A stretch of DNA of 60,790 nt from positions 1 through 60,790 of the forward strand of contig DASYUT010000133.1 of NCBI GenBank assembly GCA_036000965.1, in the 5' to 3' direction. This DNA comes from Actinomycetes bacterium (GTDB lineage Bacteria; Actinomycetota; CALGFH01). Under the pieces are notes generated by a model that was given only the letters and a program-made list of their open reading frames with translations, was not told where the DNA came from and ran no database searches. Of this stretch, positions 15,883-21,056 are shown piece by piece (the stretch's first letter is position 1; every line of letters begins with the position of its first letter). Both the position numbers and the translations under genes were made by a program.

Positions 15883-16395
15883 ATGAGCATGCAGAGCTGG
15901 CGCGAGCCACCTGACCAGTGGGAGCCGCAGGGGTGGGAGCCCCAGACGCGGGAGCCCCAGACGCGGGAGCCCCAGGAGCCGTCCTGGGAGGCCGACCCCT
16001 GGGAGGCCGACCGGTACGGCGAGCCTGGCGCCGACGGGGTGGAGGAGGCCGCCTACCTCGACGACGGAGAGGCACCGGCCGAGCCGAACGGCGGTGTCGT
16101 CGCCGCCATCGTCGCCGCCGGCCTCGCCTGCGCGATCTTCGGGTCCCTGGTCGTGGCCACGGCGGCGAGCCCGGCGATCGCCAAGCTGATGACCTTCTAC
16201 TGGCCGGCCGGACCGCTGACCGGCAAGTCGACCGTGACCATCGTGGCATACCTGGTCATCTGGCCCAACCTGCACTACCGGCTGCGCGACCGGCACCTCG
16301 ACCTCTACAAGGCGTTCCTCTTCACGCTGTTCCTGGTCGGCCTCGGGCTGGTCGGCACCTTCCCGCCCTTCTACCAGATGTTCCAGCCGCGGTAG
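15883..16395 (+). CDS. Membrane protein with repeat-rich acidic N-terminus
   Basis: The protein has 170 residues. Residues 1-70 are acidic and Trp/Glu/Pro-rich, including a 5-residue repeat (EPQTR) encoded by a 15-nt tandem repeat at about 15930-15975. Residues 70-170 hold three hydrophobic segments (about 68-90, 103-122, 140-160). The AGGAG at 15871-15875 supports the ATG at 15883. No family is recognised. It converges with the NDH-2 gene. Confidence 0.65.
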   Translation: MSMQSWREPPDQWEPQGWEPQTREPQTREPQEPSWEADPWEADRYGEPGADGVEEAAYLDDGEAPAEPNGGVVAAIVAAGLACAIFGSLVVATAASPAIAKLMTFYWPAGPLTGKSTVTIVAYLVIWPNLHYRLRDRHLDLYKAFLFTLFLVGLGLVGTFPPFYQMFQPR

Positions 16396-16452: not shown

Positions 16453-18585
16453 TCAGGCCACCCGGTTCGGGCTGGCGCTCCGGGACCGGGAGGTCTGGGG
16501 CACCGGGTCGTTCATGGTCAGCGCGATGTCGCGCGGGAAGAACAGCTCCACGATCCAGTCGAGCAGCACGCGCAGCCGCTTCTCGGGACCGGGGAGCTTG
16601 CTGAGGTAGATGCCGCGCCACATGAGCCAGGCCAGCAGCCCGGAGAACCGCCGGCCGCGGATGTCGGCCGCTGCCTTGCCGTGTCCCAGCGTGACCAGGA
16701 ACCCGACCGTCCTGAAGGCGAATGGTCGCGGCCGCCGGCCCTCCAGCGACCTCACGATGCTCTTGGCCGCCGCCTTGCCCTGGCGGAGCGCGTGCTGGGC
16801 CGTTGGTGGGCAGGGCTTGCCGTGGTTGCCGCGGTCGGGGACGTGCGCGCAGTCCCCGACCGCCCAGACGTTGGTGGTGCCGAGCACCTGCAGGGTGCTG
16901 TCCACCAGCACCGCTCCAGCCAGGCTGCGCTCGAAGGGGAGCTGGGCGAGCAGCGGCGCCGGCCGGTTGCCGGCAGCCCAGACCAGGGTGCGTGTCGGGA
17001 GGTGGCTGCCGTCGCTGAGGCCGACCGCCTCGGCGCTGGCGCTCGTGACCCGCGTGTCGAGCAGGAAGTGCACGCCGCGCCCCTGGAGCTTGCGCTGGGC
17101 GTACTCGCCGAGCTCGCGACCGGTCTCGGGGAGGATGCGGTCGCGGCCGTGCACCAGCACGAAGCGCGGGTCGGCGGCGGTGACCCGCGGGAAGTAGCGC
17201 CGCACGCCGTGGACCAGGTCGCACAGGCCGGCCATCATCTCGACCCCGGCGAACCCTCCCCCGGCGACCACGAAGGTGAGCTGGCGCCTGCGCTCCCGCG
17301 GGTCGGTCTCGACGTCGGCCTGCTCGAGCCGGGCGATCACGTGGTTGCGCAGCCGGTTGGCGTCCCCGATCGTCTTGAGGGGCAGGGAGTTGGCCTCAAC
17401 GCCGGGCAGGTTCAGGTAGTTGGGCACGGCGCCGAGGGCGACGACCAGGTGGTCGTAGGGCAGCGCCTCGGCCGCCTGGGAGCCGCTCGCGCGCAGGCTC
17501 AGCACCTGCCGCTGGGTGTCCACGCTCTCGACTTGGGCAAGCCGGAACCGGGTCCTCGGGCAGGCCGCCCGCACCGGGACGCTGATGTGGCTGGGCTCGA
17601 GCGAGCTTGAGGCGACCTCGGCCAGCATCGGGGTGAACAGCAGAGCGTTGCTCTGGCTGACCATGGACACCTCCATGCTCGGGAGACGCGGGAGGAGCCG
17701 CTCGAGCTGGCGCGCCGTCCCCACCCCGCCGAAGCCTCCGCCGAGGATGACGACCCGGACCGGCGTCACCGGCGGGCGGCGGTCGTCCCCGGACCCGGCG
17801 CCTGCCCCGCCGGCAAGGTGCCTGGCCGCTGCCTCGTGGAAGAGCAGCCCGGCCGTCGAGCTGAGCAGCAGGGCGCCGAGGAGGCTGGGGAGCCGCTCCC
17901 CCACGCCAGCTCCGGACCAGGCCACCTGCCCGGTCGTCAGCAACGGCCAGGAGGTGAGCGGCACCGTCACCCACCAGGCCAGGCCCAGGAGCAGGCCGCC
18001 GGTGAGCGCGCGGGCGTGGCTGCGGGGACGGTGGCGGAACACGACCGCCCTGACCCGGATGCGCCCGGAGGCCCCCACTCCGCGCCGGCCTTGCGCCCGT
18101 CCCGAGCCGGGCGAGCTCGCCCCGGCTCCCAGCCGCGCCGCCGGCGCGGCATGCCGCCCGCGGCGGCCGGGCCCGGGTGCCGCCCCGCGACCGAGGCGCC
18201 CCGGGACCGGCTCGGGCGCCGGCCGGCGCGGGACCGGCTCGGGCGCCAGCCGGCGGCCGACGAACGCCACCAGCAGGAAGCCGAACCCGGTGACGACCAA
18301 GCCGGCCAGGAGGGCGGCCCGCGACCGCACGCTGGTCAGGGGGAGGTTCCCGCTGTCGGCGCCGGTGGCCAGGTAGGTGGGGGCGGTGGGTGCGGCGGCG
18401 GCGTTCTGCCGCGGCGGCGGAGCGGGGCTGGCCTGCGGGACCGGAGCCGGCTGCGCGGCGGCGCTGCCCCCACCGGTCGCGTTCCCGATGTACGCGCCAC
18501 CGTCGTAGCCGGGCGGGACGAGGGCGGCGGCGAGGATAGCGGCGGAGGCCACCACGAGCGTCGCCAGGAGGAGCTTCCTCGCCAC
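16453..18585 (-). CDS. Type II NADH dehydrogenase-like protein with exported-protein-like N-terminal extension
   Basis: The protein has 710 residues against about 400-450 for ordinary NDH-2. The catalytic part starts near residue 274: FAD motif VVILGGGFGG, NADH motif FVVAGGGFAGVE (about 437-448), FAD-closing NVWAVGDCAHV (about 572), and a C-terminal membrane-associating region (LAWLMWRGIYLSKLPGPEKRLRVLLDWI). The N-terminal 110 residues resemble a small secreted wall protein: signal-like helix, Ala/Pro-rich linker, LPLTS at 81-85, hydrophobic segment, Arg pair. An Arg/Pro/Gly-rich stretch and two more membrane helices (about 200-255) follow. The start is GTG. It lies downstream of the ECF sigma gene. 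Confidence 0.85.
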   Translation of the reverse strand: MARKLLLATLVVASAAILAAALVPPGYDGGAYIGNATGGGSAAAQPAPVPQASPAPPPRQNAAAAPTAPTYLATGADSGNLPLTSVRSRAALLAGLVVTGFGFLLVAFVGRRLAPEPVPRRPAPEPVPGRLGRGAAPGPGRRGRHAAPAARLGAGASSPGSGRAQGRRGVGASGRIRVRAVVFRHRPRSHARALTGGLLLGLAWWVTVPLTSWPLLTTGQVAWSGAGVGERLPSLLGALLLSSTAGLLFHEAAARHLAGGAGAGSGDDRRPPVTPVRVVILGGGFGGVGTARQLERLLPRLPSMEVSMVSQSNALLFTPMLAEVASSSLEPSHISVPVRAACPRTRFRLAQVESVDTQRQVLSLRASGSQAAEALPYDHLVVALGAVPNYLNLPGVEANSLPLKTIGDANRLRNHVIARLEQADVETDPRERRRQLTFVVAGGGFAGVEMMAGLCDLVHGVRRYFPRVTAADPRFVLVHGRDRILPETGRELGEYAQRKLQGRGVHFLLDTRVTSASAEAVGLSDGSHLPTRTLVWAAGNRPAPLLAQLPFERSLAGAVLVDSTLQVLGTTNVWAVGDCAHVPDRGNHGKPCPPTAQHALRQGKAAAKSIVRSLEGRRPRPFAFRTVGFLVTLGHGKAAADIRGRRFSGLLAWLMWRGIYLSKLPGPEKRLRVLLDWIVELFFPRDIALTMNDPVPQTSRSRSASPNRVA

Positions 18586-18651
18586 CTCAGAGCCCTTTCG
18601 AACGCGCGCGGGGGCCTCCGGGACGACCTGCCGCTCTTGCCGGATGCGGGC

Positions 18652-19212
18652 TCACGACGCCTTCGCCCGCTCGGCCGCGTCCACCGCCTCCGCCTGCAGC
18701 ACGAGGAGTTGGCGGAGACGCCCGCGGGCACGGTGCAGGCGGGAGAGGACGGTCCCCCTGGGCGTGCCCATGACCTCGCCGGCCTCCGCGCACGACAGAC
18801 CGTGGATCTCGACCAGGGTCACCGCGTCCCTGAACGGGTCTGGGAGCTGGGCGAGCGCCCGGTGCAGGGCCTCGCGGTCGAGCAGGCGCAGGACCTGCTC
18901 CTCGGGCCCAGGCGTGTCGCTGACCAGGTCGGCGACCAGGTCCGTCTCGTTGTCGACCTGGTCGGCCCTTGGCATGCGCAGGCGGCGGCGGTAGTCGTTG
19001 CAGGAGACGTTGTAGGCGATGCGGAGCAGCCAGGCACGGCAGTTGGTGCCGGGCTCGAAGGAGTCGAAGGACCGGAACGCCCGCAGGAAGGTCTCCTGGG
19101 CGACGTCCTGGGCCTCGGTGGGGTCGCTGGTCAGCCGATAGGCGTAGTCGTAGACGACACCCAGGAAGGGCAGGGCCGTCGCCTCGAACCGCTTGCGTGT
19201 GAGCTCGTTCAT
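18652..19212 (-). CDS. ECF-type RNA polymerase sigma factor
   Basis: The protein has 186 residues with region 2 (AYRLTSDPTEAQDVAQETFLRAFRSFDSF and the NCRAWLLRIAYN segment) and region 4 (ALAQLPDPFRDAVTLVEIHGLSCAEAGEVMGTPRGTVLSRLHRARGRLR), given as regions only. The pattern is close to the SigR/SigE type. No cysteine-rich zinc anti-sigma factor is adjacent. The gene lies between a membrane-protein gene (67-base spacer) and the NDH-2 gene (66-base spacer) on the same strand, so the three probably form an operon and the sigma factor may control it. Confidence 0.9.
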   Translation of the reverse strand: MNELTRKRFEATALPFLGVVYDYAYRLTSDPTEAQDVAQETFLRAFRSFDSFEPGTNCRAWLLRIAYNVSCNDYRRRLRMPRADQVDNETDLVADLVSDTPGPEEQVLRLLDREALHRALAQLPDPFRDAVTLVEIHGLSCAEAGEVMGTPRGTVLSRLHRARGRLRQLLVLQAEAVDAAERAKAS

Positions 19213-19279: not shown

Positions 19280-20743
19280 TCATGGCTGCCAGGGCCTGTG
19301 CATGAAGTCGTTCGGGGCGACGACGTTGATGATGGCGCCGAGCATCGAGCCGAGCAGCGCCGCCGCGAACGCGATGATGAACAGGTTGGTGAGCATCTTG
19401 CGCAGGCGAAGGTCGTTCAGCAGGAGACGGTGGTAGCGCAGCACCACGAAGGCGACGGCGGTGGCCAGGAAGGGGGTGATCCAGCCCGAGTTCACCTTCC
19501 ACTCCATGGCGAAGGTGTCCCAGAAGGCCAGCTCCTTGTGGGCCAGGAGGAACTGCTGCGGGTAGGCGTTGAGGTTGAGGGACCCCGGCCGTGGCTTGGC
19601 CCGGTAGCCGGCGTAGCCGAGCCAGGTCCCGACCAGCACCGTGATCCAGGCGACCACGGCCATGACCGCCACGCTCCACTTGCGGACGAGCTCCTTCGGC
19701 CGGGACTCCTTGGTCATGACCAGCGTGGTGAGGCCGCCGCCGAAGGCGTGGACGATGATGATCCCGCAGGTGCTGTGGGTCATGAAGAAGAGCTGCCTGG
19801 TGGTCAGGCCGTGGCCGGTCAGCGCGGCCATGACCGCGACGAGCGTGGCGGCGCCGATGCCGGCGGCCAGGGTCAGCGTCACGCCGTTGACGAGCGAGGT
19901 CCCGCGCCGGCTGGCGGCCCGGCTCGACTCGAGCCGGCGCAGGCGGCGCACGGGCAGCGAGCGCGGGTCGACAGCGGGCTCCTCGGGCTCCTGCTCGAAG
20001 AAGTCCGTCTCGTCGGCGTCGTAGCCGGCATCGCCGCTGCTGCCGTCGTCGTCGTCGTCGTACTGGTAGGCGTACCCGTCCTGGTACACGCCGTCGTCGT
20101 AGCGGGGCTCGAGGACGGTGCCGCCGGACCGGTCTTGACCCAGGTAGGCGAGGTCGACGTCGTCGCGGTCGTCGTAGAAGGGGCCGGTCGAGTCGGGGTC
20201 GGCGTAGGCCGGGTCGGCGCTCGGCGGGGTCCTGTACAGCGACCGGAGGTAGGCGAGGTCGGTGTCGCCCTGGTTCGCAGGGTACGGCTCGCCGTGCTCG
20301 ACCCCACCGTACCCGGGCAGGGCGGGGTCGGTGCCAGGCTCGTCGTAGGGGTGCACCGGCTGGGCGTGGAGCGCGCGGGCATAGGCCGAGTCGGTGAGGT
20401 TGGGGTCGGTGACGTCCGGATCGACGTAGGCGGCGCCCTGGTAGAGCGCCTGCGCGTAGGCCGGGTCGGCATAGGGGTCGGCGTAGCCGAGGCCGGTCCC
20501 GGGACCGGCGTGGACCTGGTCGCCGTAGAGGGCTCGGGCATAGGCCGAGTCGTCACCGGCGTCGTCGAAGGCCGCCGGGTCCGCATGCCACTGGCCGTTC
20601 GGGTTCGCCTTCATCTGGCTCACTCGGTTGCTCACCCTTTCCCGATCGTTGCTTCGGGCCGGCTGGCTGGGCCAGGCAGGCCGGTCGCGGGACAGCGGCT
20701 GCCAAGCGCCTGGCTGGTTGTGGTGTGGTCGAGCGCGCGTCAT
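19280..20743 (-). CDS. Membrane protein with long acidic Ala/Tyr/Asp repeat region
   Basis: The protein has 487 residues. Residues 50-240 are degenerate acidic repeats around DSAYARALY and AYADPxxxxAY, cytoplasmic by charge. The C-terminal 200 residues have five or six membrane helices with several His residues in or near them (FFMTHSTCGIIIVHAF; LLAHKELAFWDTFAMEW; LRYHRLLLND), which could bind haem, but no known haem motif is clear. The start at 20743 has AGAGG upstream; an ATG at 20614 is an alternative. It is the first gene of the sigma/NDH-2 operon. I do not recognise the family. Confidence 0.7.
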   Translation of the reverse strand: MTRARPHHNQPGAWQPLSRDRPAWPSQPARSNDRERVSNRVSQMKANPNGQWHADPAAFDDAGDDSAYARALYGDQVHAGPGTGLGYADPYADPAYAQALYQGAAYVDPDVTDPNLTDSAYARALHAQPVHPYDEPGTDPALPGYGGVEHGEPYPANQGDTDLAYLRSLYRTPPSADPAYADPDSTGPFYDDRDDVDLAYLGQDRSGGTVLEPRYDDGVYQDGYAYQYDDDDDGSSGDAGYDADETDFFEQEPEEPAVDPRSLPVRRLRRLESSRAASRRGTSLVNGVTLTLAAGIGAATLVAVMAALTGHGLTTRQLFFMTHSTCGIIIVHAFGGGLTTLVMTKESRPKELVRKWSVAVMAVVAWITVLVGTWLGYAGYRAKPRPGSLNLNAYPQQFLLAHKELAFWDTFAMEWKVNSGWITPFLATAVAFVVLRYHRLLLNDLRLRKMLTNLFIIAFAAALLGSMLGAIINVVAPNDFMHRPWQP

Positions 20744-21056
20744 GGGGACCTCTGTCGAGGCAAGGAGGAAGCAGCCGCGGTCGCGCCAATGTCCGGCCTT
20801 CGCCGATGGGCGACGGCGCACACGTGGGGGCGTGGCGCCGTCGTGGACCGTGCCGATGCACCGGACCGGTCCGGCATCGAAGCTACCGTGAACCTGCTGA
20901 GGTGCGTATTACGGTTGGGGGACAACAGTGGCGGTGCCTGACGCGGTCAGGTCCTGCCGGGCTGGATGGCGCAGTGGGGGCTGGCCGTCCGATTGGAGCT
21001 TTGGGGTTGCTCGGGCGAAACCGTACGGCACGGGCACATCGCAGTCAAATCGAACG

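What the first reader, a model, noticed from the sequence alone, without database searches (positions are those of the whole stretch)
16453..18585. NADH dehydrogenase carrying a secreted-protein-like N-terminus
About 270 extra residues precede the NDH-2 core: a signal-like helix, Ala/Pro linker, an LPLTS motif followed by a hydrophobic segment and Arg pair (the outline of a sortase sorting signal), an Arg/Pro/Gly-rich linker and two further membrane helices. A dehydrogenase tethered this way, with a part facing outside, would be new to me.
Basis: partly seen in the sequence, partly recalled or inferred. Interest (0 to 1): 0.55.

Follow-up and report, generated by a model that had tools for sequence, protein, structure and literature searches.

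The report
Run-on gene joined to NADH dehydrogenase
The long "secreted" start of this NADH dehydrogenase looks like a neighbouring surface-protein gene that lost its stop and now runs into an otherwise ordinary membrane-bound enzyme, which belongs to a two-gene family we found no description of.

Summary
The ORF is real: 710 codons, no stop, minus strand 18585-16453, with the features listed. It is a composite. Codons 1-115 (signal-like helix, Ala/Pro linker, LPLTS, helix, Arg pair) and 180-710 carry strong coding signal; codons 120-174 carry none (0 of 501 real-gene windows score as low). In both sister genomes the NDH-2 at the syntenic place is a separate gene, and the secreted gene before it ends in TGA. 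None of 73 related loci matched residues 1-154. Best reading: a one-genome run-on of a secreted gene through spacer DNA into NDH-2 (or an assembly error of that form), not a wall-tethered dehydrogenase. The two helices before the core are half of a four-helix DUF1440-type module. In 21 of 21 loci with that module fused to NDH-2, a gene with exactly three more copies lies beside it. This gene pair spans several phyla, has no clear PDB fold match, and was not found in our paper searches. The window locus is a degraded member; the same genome holds an intact pair.

The parts
18593..18598 (-). AAAGGG ribosome-binding-site-like hexamer, 7 bases before the GTG start
   Evidence: sequence printed
18250..18585 (-). 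'Gene A' part, residues 1-112: signal-like helix (5-23), Ala/Pro linker, LPLTS (81-85, window 18331-18345), hydrophobic helix and Arg-Arg
   Evidence: codon score of residues 1-115 is 0.69; helices; N-terminal part similar to the cupredoxin lipoproteins after the ECF sigma gene in G001/G002 (39-41%, E 2e-4 and 3e-5), C-terminal part similar to LPFTG sorting signals
18049..18249 (-). Spacer-like stretch, residues 113-179, Arg/Pro/Gly-rich, about 88% G+C, no coding signal in any frame over residues 121-180
   Evidence: composition, chance of open frame; codon score; disordered in the model, residues 110-188 under pLDDT 50
18040..18042 (-). Candidate internal start of NDH-2 proper (GTG, residue 182), preceded by CAGGGCGGTC; a second candidate is GTG at residue 170 (window 18076-18078)
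   Evidence: start codons and upstream bases listed; not shown to be used
17806..18048 (-). Second half (two helices) of a DUF1440-type four-helix membrane module, residues 180-260
   Evidence: profile of the relatives' module matches model positions 49-123 of 133, i-E-value 5e-15; hairpin 189-218/232-260 with pLDDT mostly 75-91
16510..17760 (-). NDH-2 core, residues 276-692
   Evidence: Pfam, PDB sequence and fold matches; A1 alignment
18652..19212 (-). ECF sigma factor gene upstream; the same neighbour lies before the secreted genes in G001 (L022) and G002 (L105)
   Evidence: Pfam; relatives
15883..16395 (+). Convergent membrane protein gene downstream, also found next to the G002 locus; the three-module gene that lies between them in G002 is absent here
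   Evidence: only the ORF itself matches the module profile among 554 window ORFs

Best explanation
The ORF is a run-on of two genes that are separate in the sister genomes. Gene A (residues 1 to about 115) encodes a small exported protein with a decayed sorting signal (LPLTS where other signals of this genome read LPYTG and LPLTG). Gene B (from about residue 170-182) encodes a type II NADH:quinone oxidoreductase anchored by the second half of a DUF1440-type four-helix module. Gene A has lost its stop, and the roughly 180-200 bases of very GC-rich spacer happen to lack a stop in that frame. The enzyme itself should work as an ordinary NDH-2: cytosolic NADH to FAD to membrane quinone, with the helical hairpin as anchor. 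It is probably made at least partly from an internal GTG; read-through from gene A would add a short unstructured outside segment. Shown: the open frame, the break in coding signal, separate genes in two relatives, the syntenic and tree-supported relationship, and the predicted NDH-2 fold. Inferred: stop loss in the living organism rather than in the assembly, use of an internal start, topology and activity.
For: Codon scores 0.69 / -0.16 / 0.46 / 0.75 for residues 1-115, 120-174, 181-265 and 266-710; 0 of 501 real-gene windows as low as the middle stretch. G001 and G002: ECF sigma, cupredoxin lipoprotein, mucin-like secreted protein, CHRD protein with an LAFTG-type tail ending in TGA, then a weakly coding leader, then NDH-2 with only the two-helix half-module (in G002 the pieces lie on two contigs). 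The window core is sister to G001/G002 (support 88/97), and the convergent downstream gene is shared with G002. None of 73 loci matched query residues 1-154. In 396 genomes of the phylum, 7 had any match to residues 1-275 and only the window genome matched from residue 1; the lowest start among the rest was residue 112. AlphaFold2 leaves 20-85 and 110-188 disordered and folds hairpin plus core.
Against: There is no stop between the parts, and none close by in the other two frames either (after gene A the next stop is at about codon 205 in one frame, none up to codon 290 in the other). So as sequenced, any ribosome starting at the well-placed GTG makes the fusion. An Arg/Pro/Gly linker of biased composition could be translated and still score poorly. 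The leader in G001/G002 is only weakly non-coding (scores about -0.2 to 0.3). In the relatives the gene directly before NDH-2 is a CHRD protein, not an exact copy of gene A. Only three genomes of the family are held.
Confidence: 0.66

Rival explanations
1. True, functional fusion: the 710-residue protein is made and kept by selection, with an exported, possibly sortase-cut N-terminal segment, a third membrane helix and a cytosolic NDH-2.
For: Unbroken frame with a good ribosome-binding site; gene A and NDH-2 parts both coding in the same frame; helix order and the Arg pair permit a topology with NDH-2 inside; sortases are present (3 matches over cut-off in the window genome, one class E).
Against: Linker without coding signal; seen in one genome only; separate genes in sister genomes; no folded domain outside; LPLTS not recognised by sorting-signal models.
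Confidence: 0.17
2. Sequencing or assembly artefact: an error in the very GC-rich spacer removed the stop or joined distant pieces, and the organism has two normal genes.
For: The contig belongs to a draft of 358 contigs with estimated 4.19% contamination; the 204-base stretch is about 88% G+C and contains a near-repeat (LAPEPVPRR/PAPEPVPGR, from reading); relatives have separate genes.
Against: No single-base shift gives gene A a nearby stop in another frame, so the error would have to be a substitution or a larger loss. Reads cannot be inspected here.
Confidence: 0.12
3. Gene A is already a dead remnant: only NDH-2 is translated, from GTG 170 or 182.
For: Decayed sorting signal, and no Cys lipobox or cupredoxin domain compared with the relatives' gene in that position; internal GTGs with purine-rich sequence ahead.
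Against: Gene A still has strong codon bias (0.69) and a good ribosome-binding site.
Confidence: 0.05

Closest known systems
Type II NADH:quinone oxidoreductase (NDH-2), e.g. mycobacterial NDH2 (9mqy/9mqz), Caldalkalibacillus NDH-2 (4nwz), yeast Ndi1 (4g6g)
   Same: Core sequence and predicted fold: E 4e-45 to 9mqy_A by sequence; Foldseek E about 1e-35, target TM-score 0.76-0.92 for these entries.
   Different: Two extra N-terminal helices from a DUF1440-type module, and in the ORF a further 179 residues that the known ones lack.
DUF1440 / DUF6789 membrane proteins (Pfam PF07274, PF20587)
   Same: The neighbouring three-module genes match DUF1440, some above the cut-off, and one fused module weakly.
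   Different: The window's own half-module is not called by Pfam; only a profile from its relatives finds it. Four papers name DUF1440 (listing only); no link to NADH dehydrogenase shows in their titles or abstract starts.
LPXTG-type sortase substrates
   Same: Order of signal-like helix, linker, LPxTx, hydrophobic helix, Arg pair; alignment to LPFTG signals of sister genomes.
   Different: Fifth residue Ser, not at the C-terminus, and not recognised by LPXTG_anchor or Gram_pos_anchor.
EET-dedicated NADH dehydrogenase Ndh3 of Enterococcus faecalis
   Same: A second NDH-2-type enzyme with a special role, NADH to quinone (passages of PMC9864754).
   Different: That paper's main text has no 'transmembrane'; extra helices on such enzymes are recalled, from no call. 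No EET genes were looked for here.

Membership tests
Type II NADH dehydrogenase (NDH-2) | Two-dinucleotide-binding flavoprotein core | tested here: met
   Pyr_redox_2 3.8e-45, 155 bits over cut-off 26.1; glycine motifs at 282 and 442 largely invariant in A1
Type II NADH dehydrogenase (NDH-2) | NDH-2 C-terminal domain | tested here: met
   NDH2_C 33.6 bits over cut-off 27.7, residues 630-686
Type II NADH dehydrogenase (NDH-2) | NDH-2 fold | tested here: met
   The first 26 Foldseek PDB rows are all NDH-2 or NDH-2-like entries
Type II NADH dehydrogenase (NDH-2) | NADH:quinone oxidoreductase activity | not testable with these tools
   needs expression and assay
Sortase (LPXTG-type) substrate | Recognised sorting signal | tested here: not met
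   No LPXTG_anchor match for residues 1-121 at E up to 10, none at this place in the genome search at E up to 1, no Gram_pos_anchor match; but LPLTS and its helix align to real LPFTG signals
Sortase (LPXTG-type) substrate | Signal at the C-terminus | tested here: not met
   LPLTS at 81-85 of 710
Sortase (LPXTG-type) substrate | A sortase in the genome | tested here: met
   3 matches over cut-off in G000; the one tested is class E
Sortase (LPXTG-type) substrate | Cleaved N-terminal signal peptide | tested here: inconclusive
   hydrophobic helix 5-23; no signal-peptide predictor available
NDH-2 plus three-module membrane gene (described here) | Four-helix module fused before the NDH-2 core | tested here: inconclusive
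   only model positions 49-123 of 133 are matched, i.e. about half a module
NDH-2 plus three-module membrane gene (described here) | Adjacent gene with three modules | tested here: not met
   no other window ORF matches the module profile at E up to 1; the intact pair is elsewhere in the genome, L021

The most novel reading that the evidence does not exclude
The locus is a degraded member of an undescribed two-subunit NADH dehydrogenase: NDH-2 carrying one four-helix module, plus a partner carrying three copies, together a four-module, roughly 16-helix membrane part. This would do more than anchor the enzyme, for example couple NADH oxidation to movement of an ion, quinone or other solute. In the window genome the intact pair would be at L021, and the window copy would have lost half its module and its partner and been joined to a neighbouring surface gene.
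Probability: 0.3. Interest if true: 0.75.

Novelty: new variant of a known kind. Interest (0 to 1): 0.35.

Why it matters
It warns that an open frame in very GC-rich DNA can join a surface-protein gene to an enzyme and look like a new architecture. More usefully, tracing the two extra helices leads to a conserved gene pair in several phyla. NDH-2 enzymes are normally single, peripheral proteins (recalled); a dedicated multi-module membrane partner would raise a testable question of what the membrane part does.

Tried and rejected
Frameshift: I looked for a nearby stop for gene A in the other two frames and found none, so a simple one-base indel does not explain the run-on. Hidden first helices of the module in other frames of the spacer: none seen. 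Promoter or terminator in the spacer: none found for 17700-18800, but the scan covers only sigma-70 and simple terminators. A sortase-cleaved polyprotein was considered and not adopted.

The first codon model (and the window part) was trained with two genes out of frame; I found this from its own control output and replaced it. Only one search is used for window codon scores. From I keep the relatives' scores, whose training frames I checked by arithmetic, and the base composition.

The neighbour clustering found no further shared gene beside the pair; its other clusters overlap the pair in other frames or strands, or are in 2-3 loci. In one search the neighbour rule missed the three-module genes of L021 and L022, which one search lists. 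Two of the 22 relatives in A1 (L028, L036) were entered with starts that cut their first helices, so A1 understates their module. L023's half-module falls below the profile threshold. Fold comparison of the three-module protein: best Foldseek E 0.24; best VIA Z 6.4 over 112 residues to MmpL4, within the range the tool calls common for helical bundles. This does not show a new fold. No PDB sequence match at E up to 1.

Paper searches: (listings only), plus passages of PMC9864754. None of the listings described an NDH-2 with this membrane module or a secreted front; the library is open-access only.

Full report
What is there. The finding lies on the minus strand. From GTG at 18585 to the stop at 16453 there are 710 codons without a stop. 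AAAGGG lies seven bases ahead of the GTG. Pfam calls the two-dinucleotide-binding core at 277-603 and NDH2_C at 630-686. PDB sequences and the predicted fold agree on NDH-2.

It is not one piece. A codon model trained on seven genes of the same genome, with the query left out (2499 codons), scores residues 1-115 at 0.69, 181-265 at 0.46 and 266-710 at 0.75, but 120-174 at -0.16. Of 501 windows of 55 codons from eight genes scored leave-one-out, none is that low. The middle has no coding signal in the other two frames either. The 204 bases around it are about 88% G+C, where 68 codons stay open by chance with probability about 0.77. AlphaFold2 leaves residues 110-188 under pLDDT 50.

Relatives have separate genes. 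Two genomes of the same family are held. In G001 one contig carries ECF sigma, a cupredoxin lipoprotein, a mucin-like secreted protein, a CHRD protein ending in an LAFTG-type tail, NDH-2, and a three-module membrane gene. G002 shows the same on two contigs. The CHRD genes end in TGA, and a leader of weak coding signal follows before NDH-2. The window core is sister to G001/G002 (support 88/97), and the convergent downstream gene is shared with G002. Gene A resembles the start of the cupredoxin lipoproteins (39-41%) and, in its C-terminal part, LPFTG sorting signals of other proteins in the sister genomes (42-46%). Its motif reads LPLTS, where two signals found in the window genome read LPYTG and LPLTG. 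The LPXTG models do not accept it.

How common is the architecture. None of 73 loci found in the species-genome collection matched query residues before 155. That scan uses short peptides and may miss distant cases. In 396 genomes of the phylum, 7 matched residues 1-275 at E up to 1e-4, and only the window genome matched from residue 1 (at most six candidates were scored per genome).

Working. The enzyme part should act as an ordinary NDH-2 at the inner face of the membrane. The helix order and the Arg pair would put the core inside and residues 24-88 outside (inference; no topology predictor was run). A sortase cut at LPLT/S would separate the two parts. I take the secreted front as a run-on from stop loss, confidence 0.66, with a true fusion (0.17), assembly error (0.12) and a dead gene A (0.05) as rivals.

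What the two extra helices are. A profile built from the fused modules of 19 relatives matches the window ORF over model positions 49-123 of 133, i-E-value 5e-15. The full module has four helices and resembles DUF1440/DUF6789. Of 57 NDH-2 loci examined, 21 have the module fused to NDH-2 by this profile, and all 21 have a gene with exactly three further copies beside it. Three more loci have the three-module gene: L023, whose half-module is below threshold, and L052 and L076, whose NDH-2 is cut by the contig end. The other 33 have neither. For 21 loci I measured the gap between the two genes: 15 lie between -4 and +15 bases, and the other 6 range from -139 to +119, with starts that I chose. A tree of 88 modules groups them mostly by position (5 label changes, minimum 3; 0 of 200 shuffles as low), so the four-module layout looks old. 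Record titles and their taxonomy place the loci in Actinomycetota, Acidobacteriota, Chloroflexota, Verrucomicrobiota, Myxococcota, Armatimonadota and Bacillota; many are MAGs. The three-module protein of L027 is predicted with pLDDT 88 and pTM 0.89 and has no clear PDB match.

The window copy is the exception: half a module, no three-module neighbour, and a long branch in the module tree (1.55). The same genome keeps an intact pair at L021. The physical complex and any coupling are inference.

Verdict. The finding as framed is mostly an accident of an open frame. The gene pair behind its two inner helices is the part worth a specialist's time.

Noticed in passing
L021 2785-6191 (own genome, contig C358), and loci L022, L023, L027-L043, L048, L049, L052, L076: Conserved gene pair: NDH-2 with one N-terminal four-helix DUF1440-type module (half a module in L022 and L023; NDH-2 cut by the contig end in L052 and L076), next to a gene with exactly three copies of the module; 24 loci, several phyla.
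   Followed up: partly
L022 1051-3147 (G001) and L105/L023 (G002): Next to NDH-2 in the sister genomes: ECF sigma, cupredoxin lipoprotein, mucin-like secreted protein and CHRD protein with an LAFTG-type tail; the cupredoxin's best match in the window genome is only 33% identical, the CHRD protein's a weak E 4e-4 match.
   Followed up: partly
L024 4073-6847 (G027): An NDH-2 followed in the same 925-residue open frame by what look like a cyclic-nucleotide-binding-like stretch and two FHA-like stretches, next to a gene with a similar C-terminal stretch; domain names are from reading, not from a search.
   Followed up: no
window 19280-20623, minus: Membrane protein with a long Asp/Tyr/Ala/Pro-rich repetitive N-terminal part before its helices; no Pfam match of note for the longer frame 19280-20821.
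   Followed up: no
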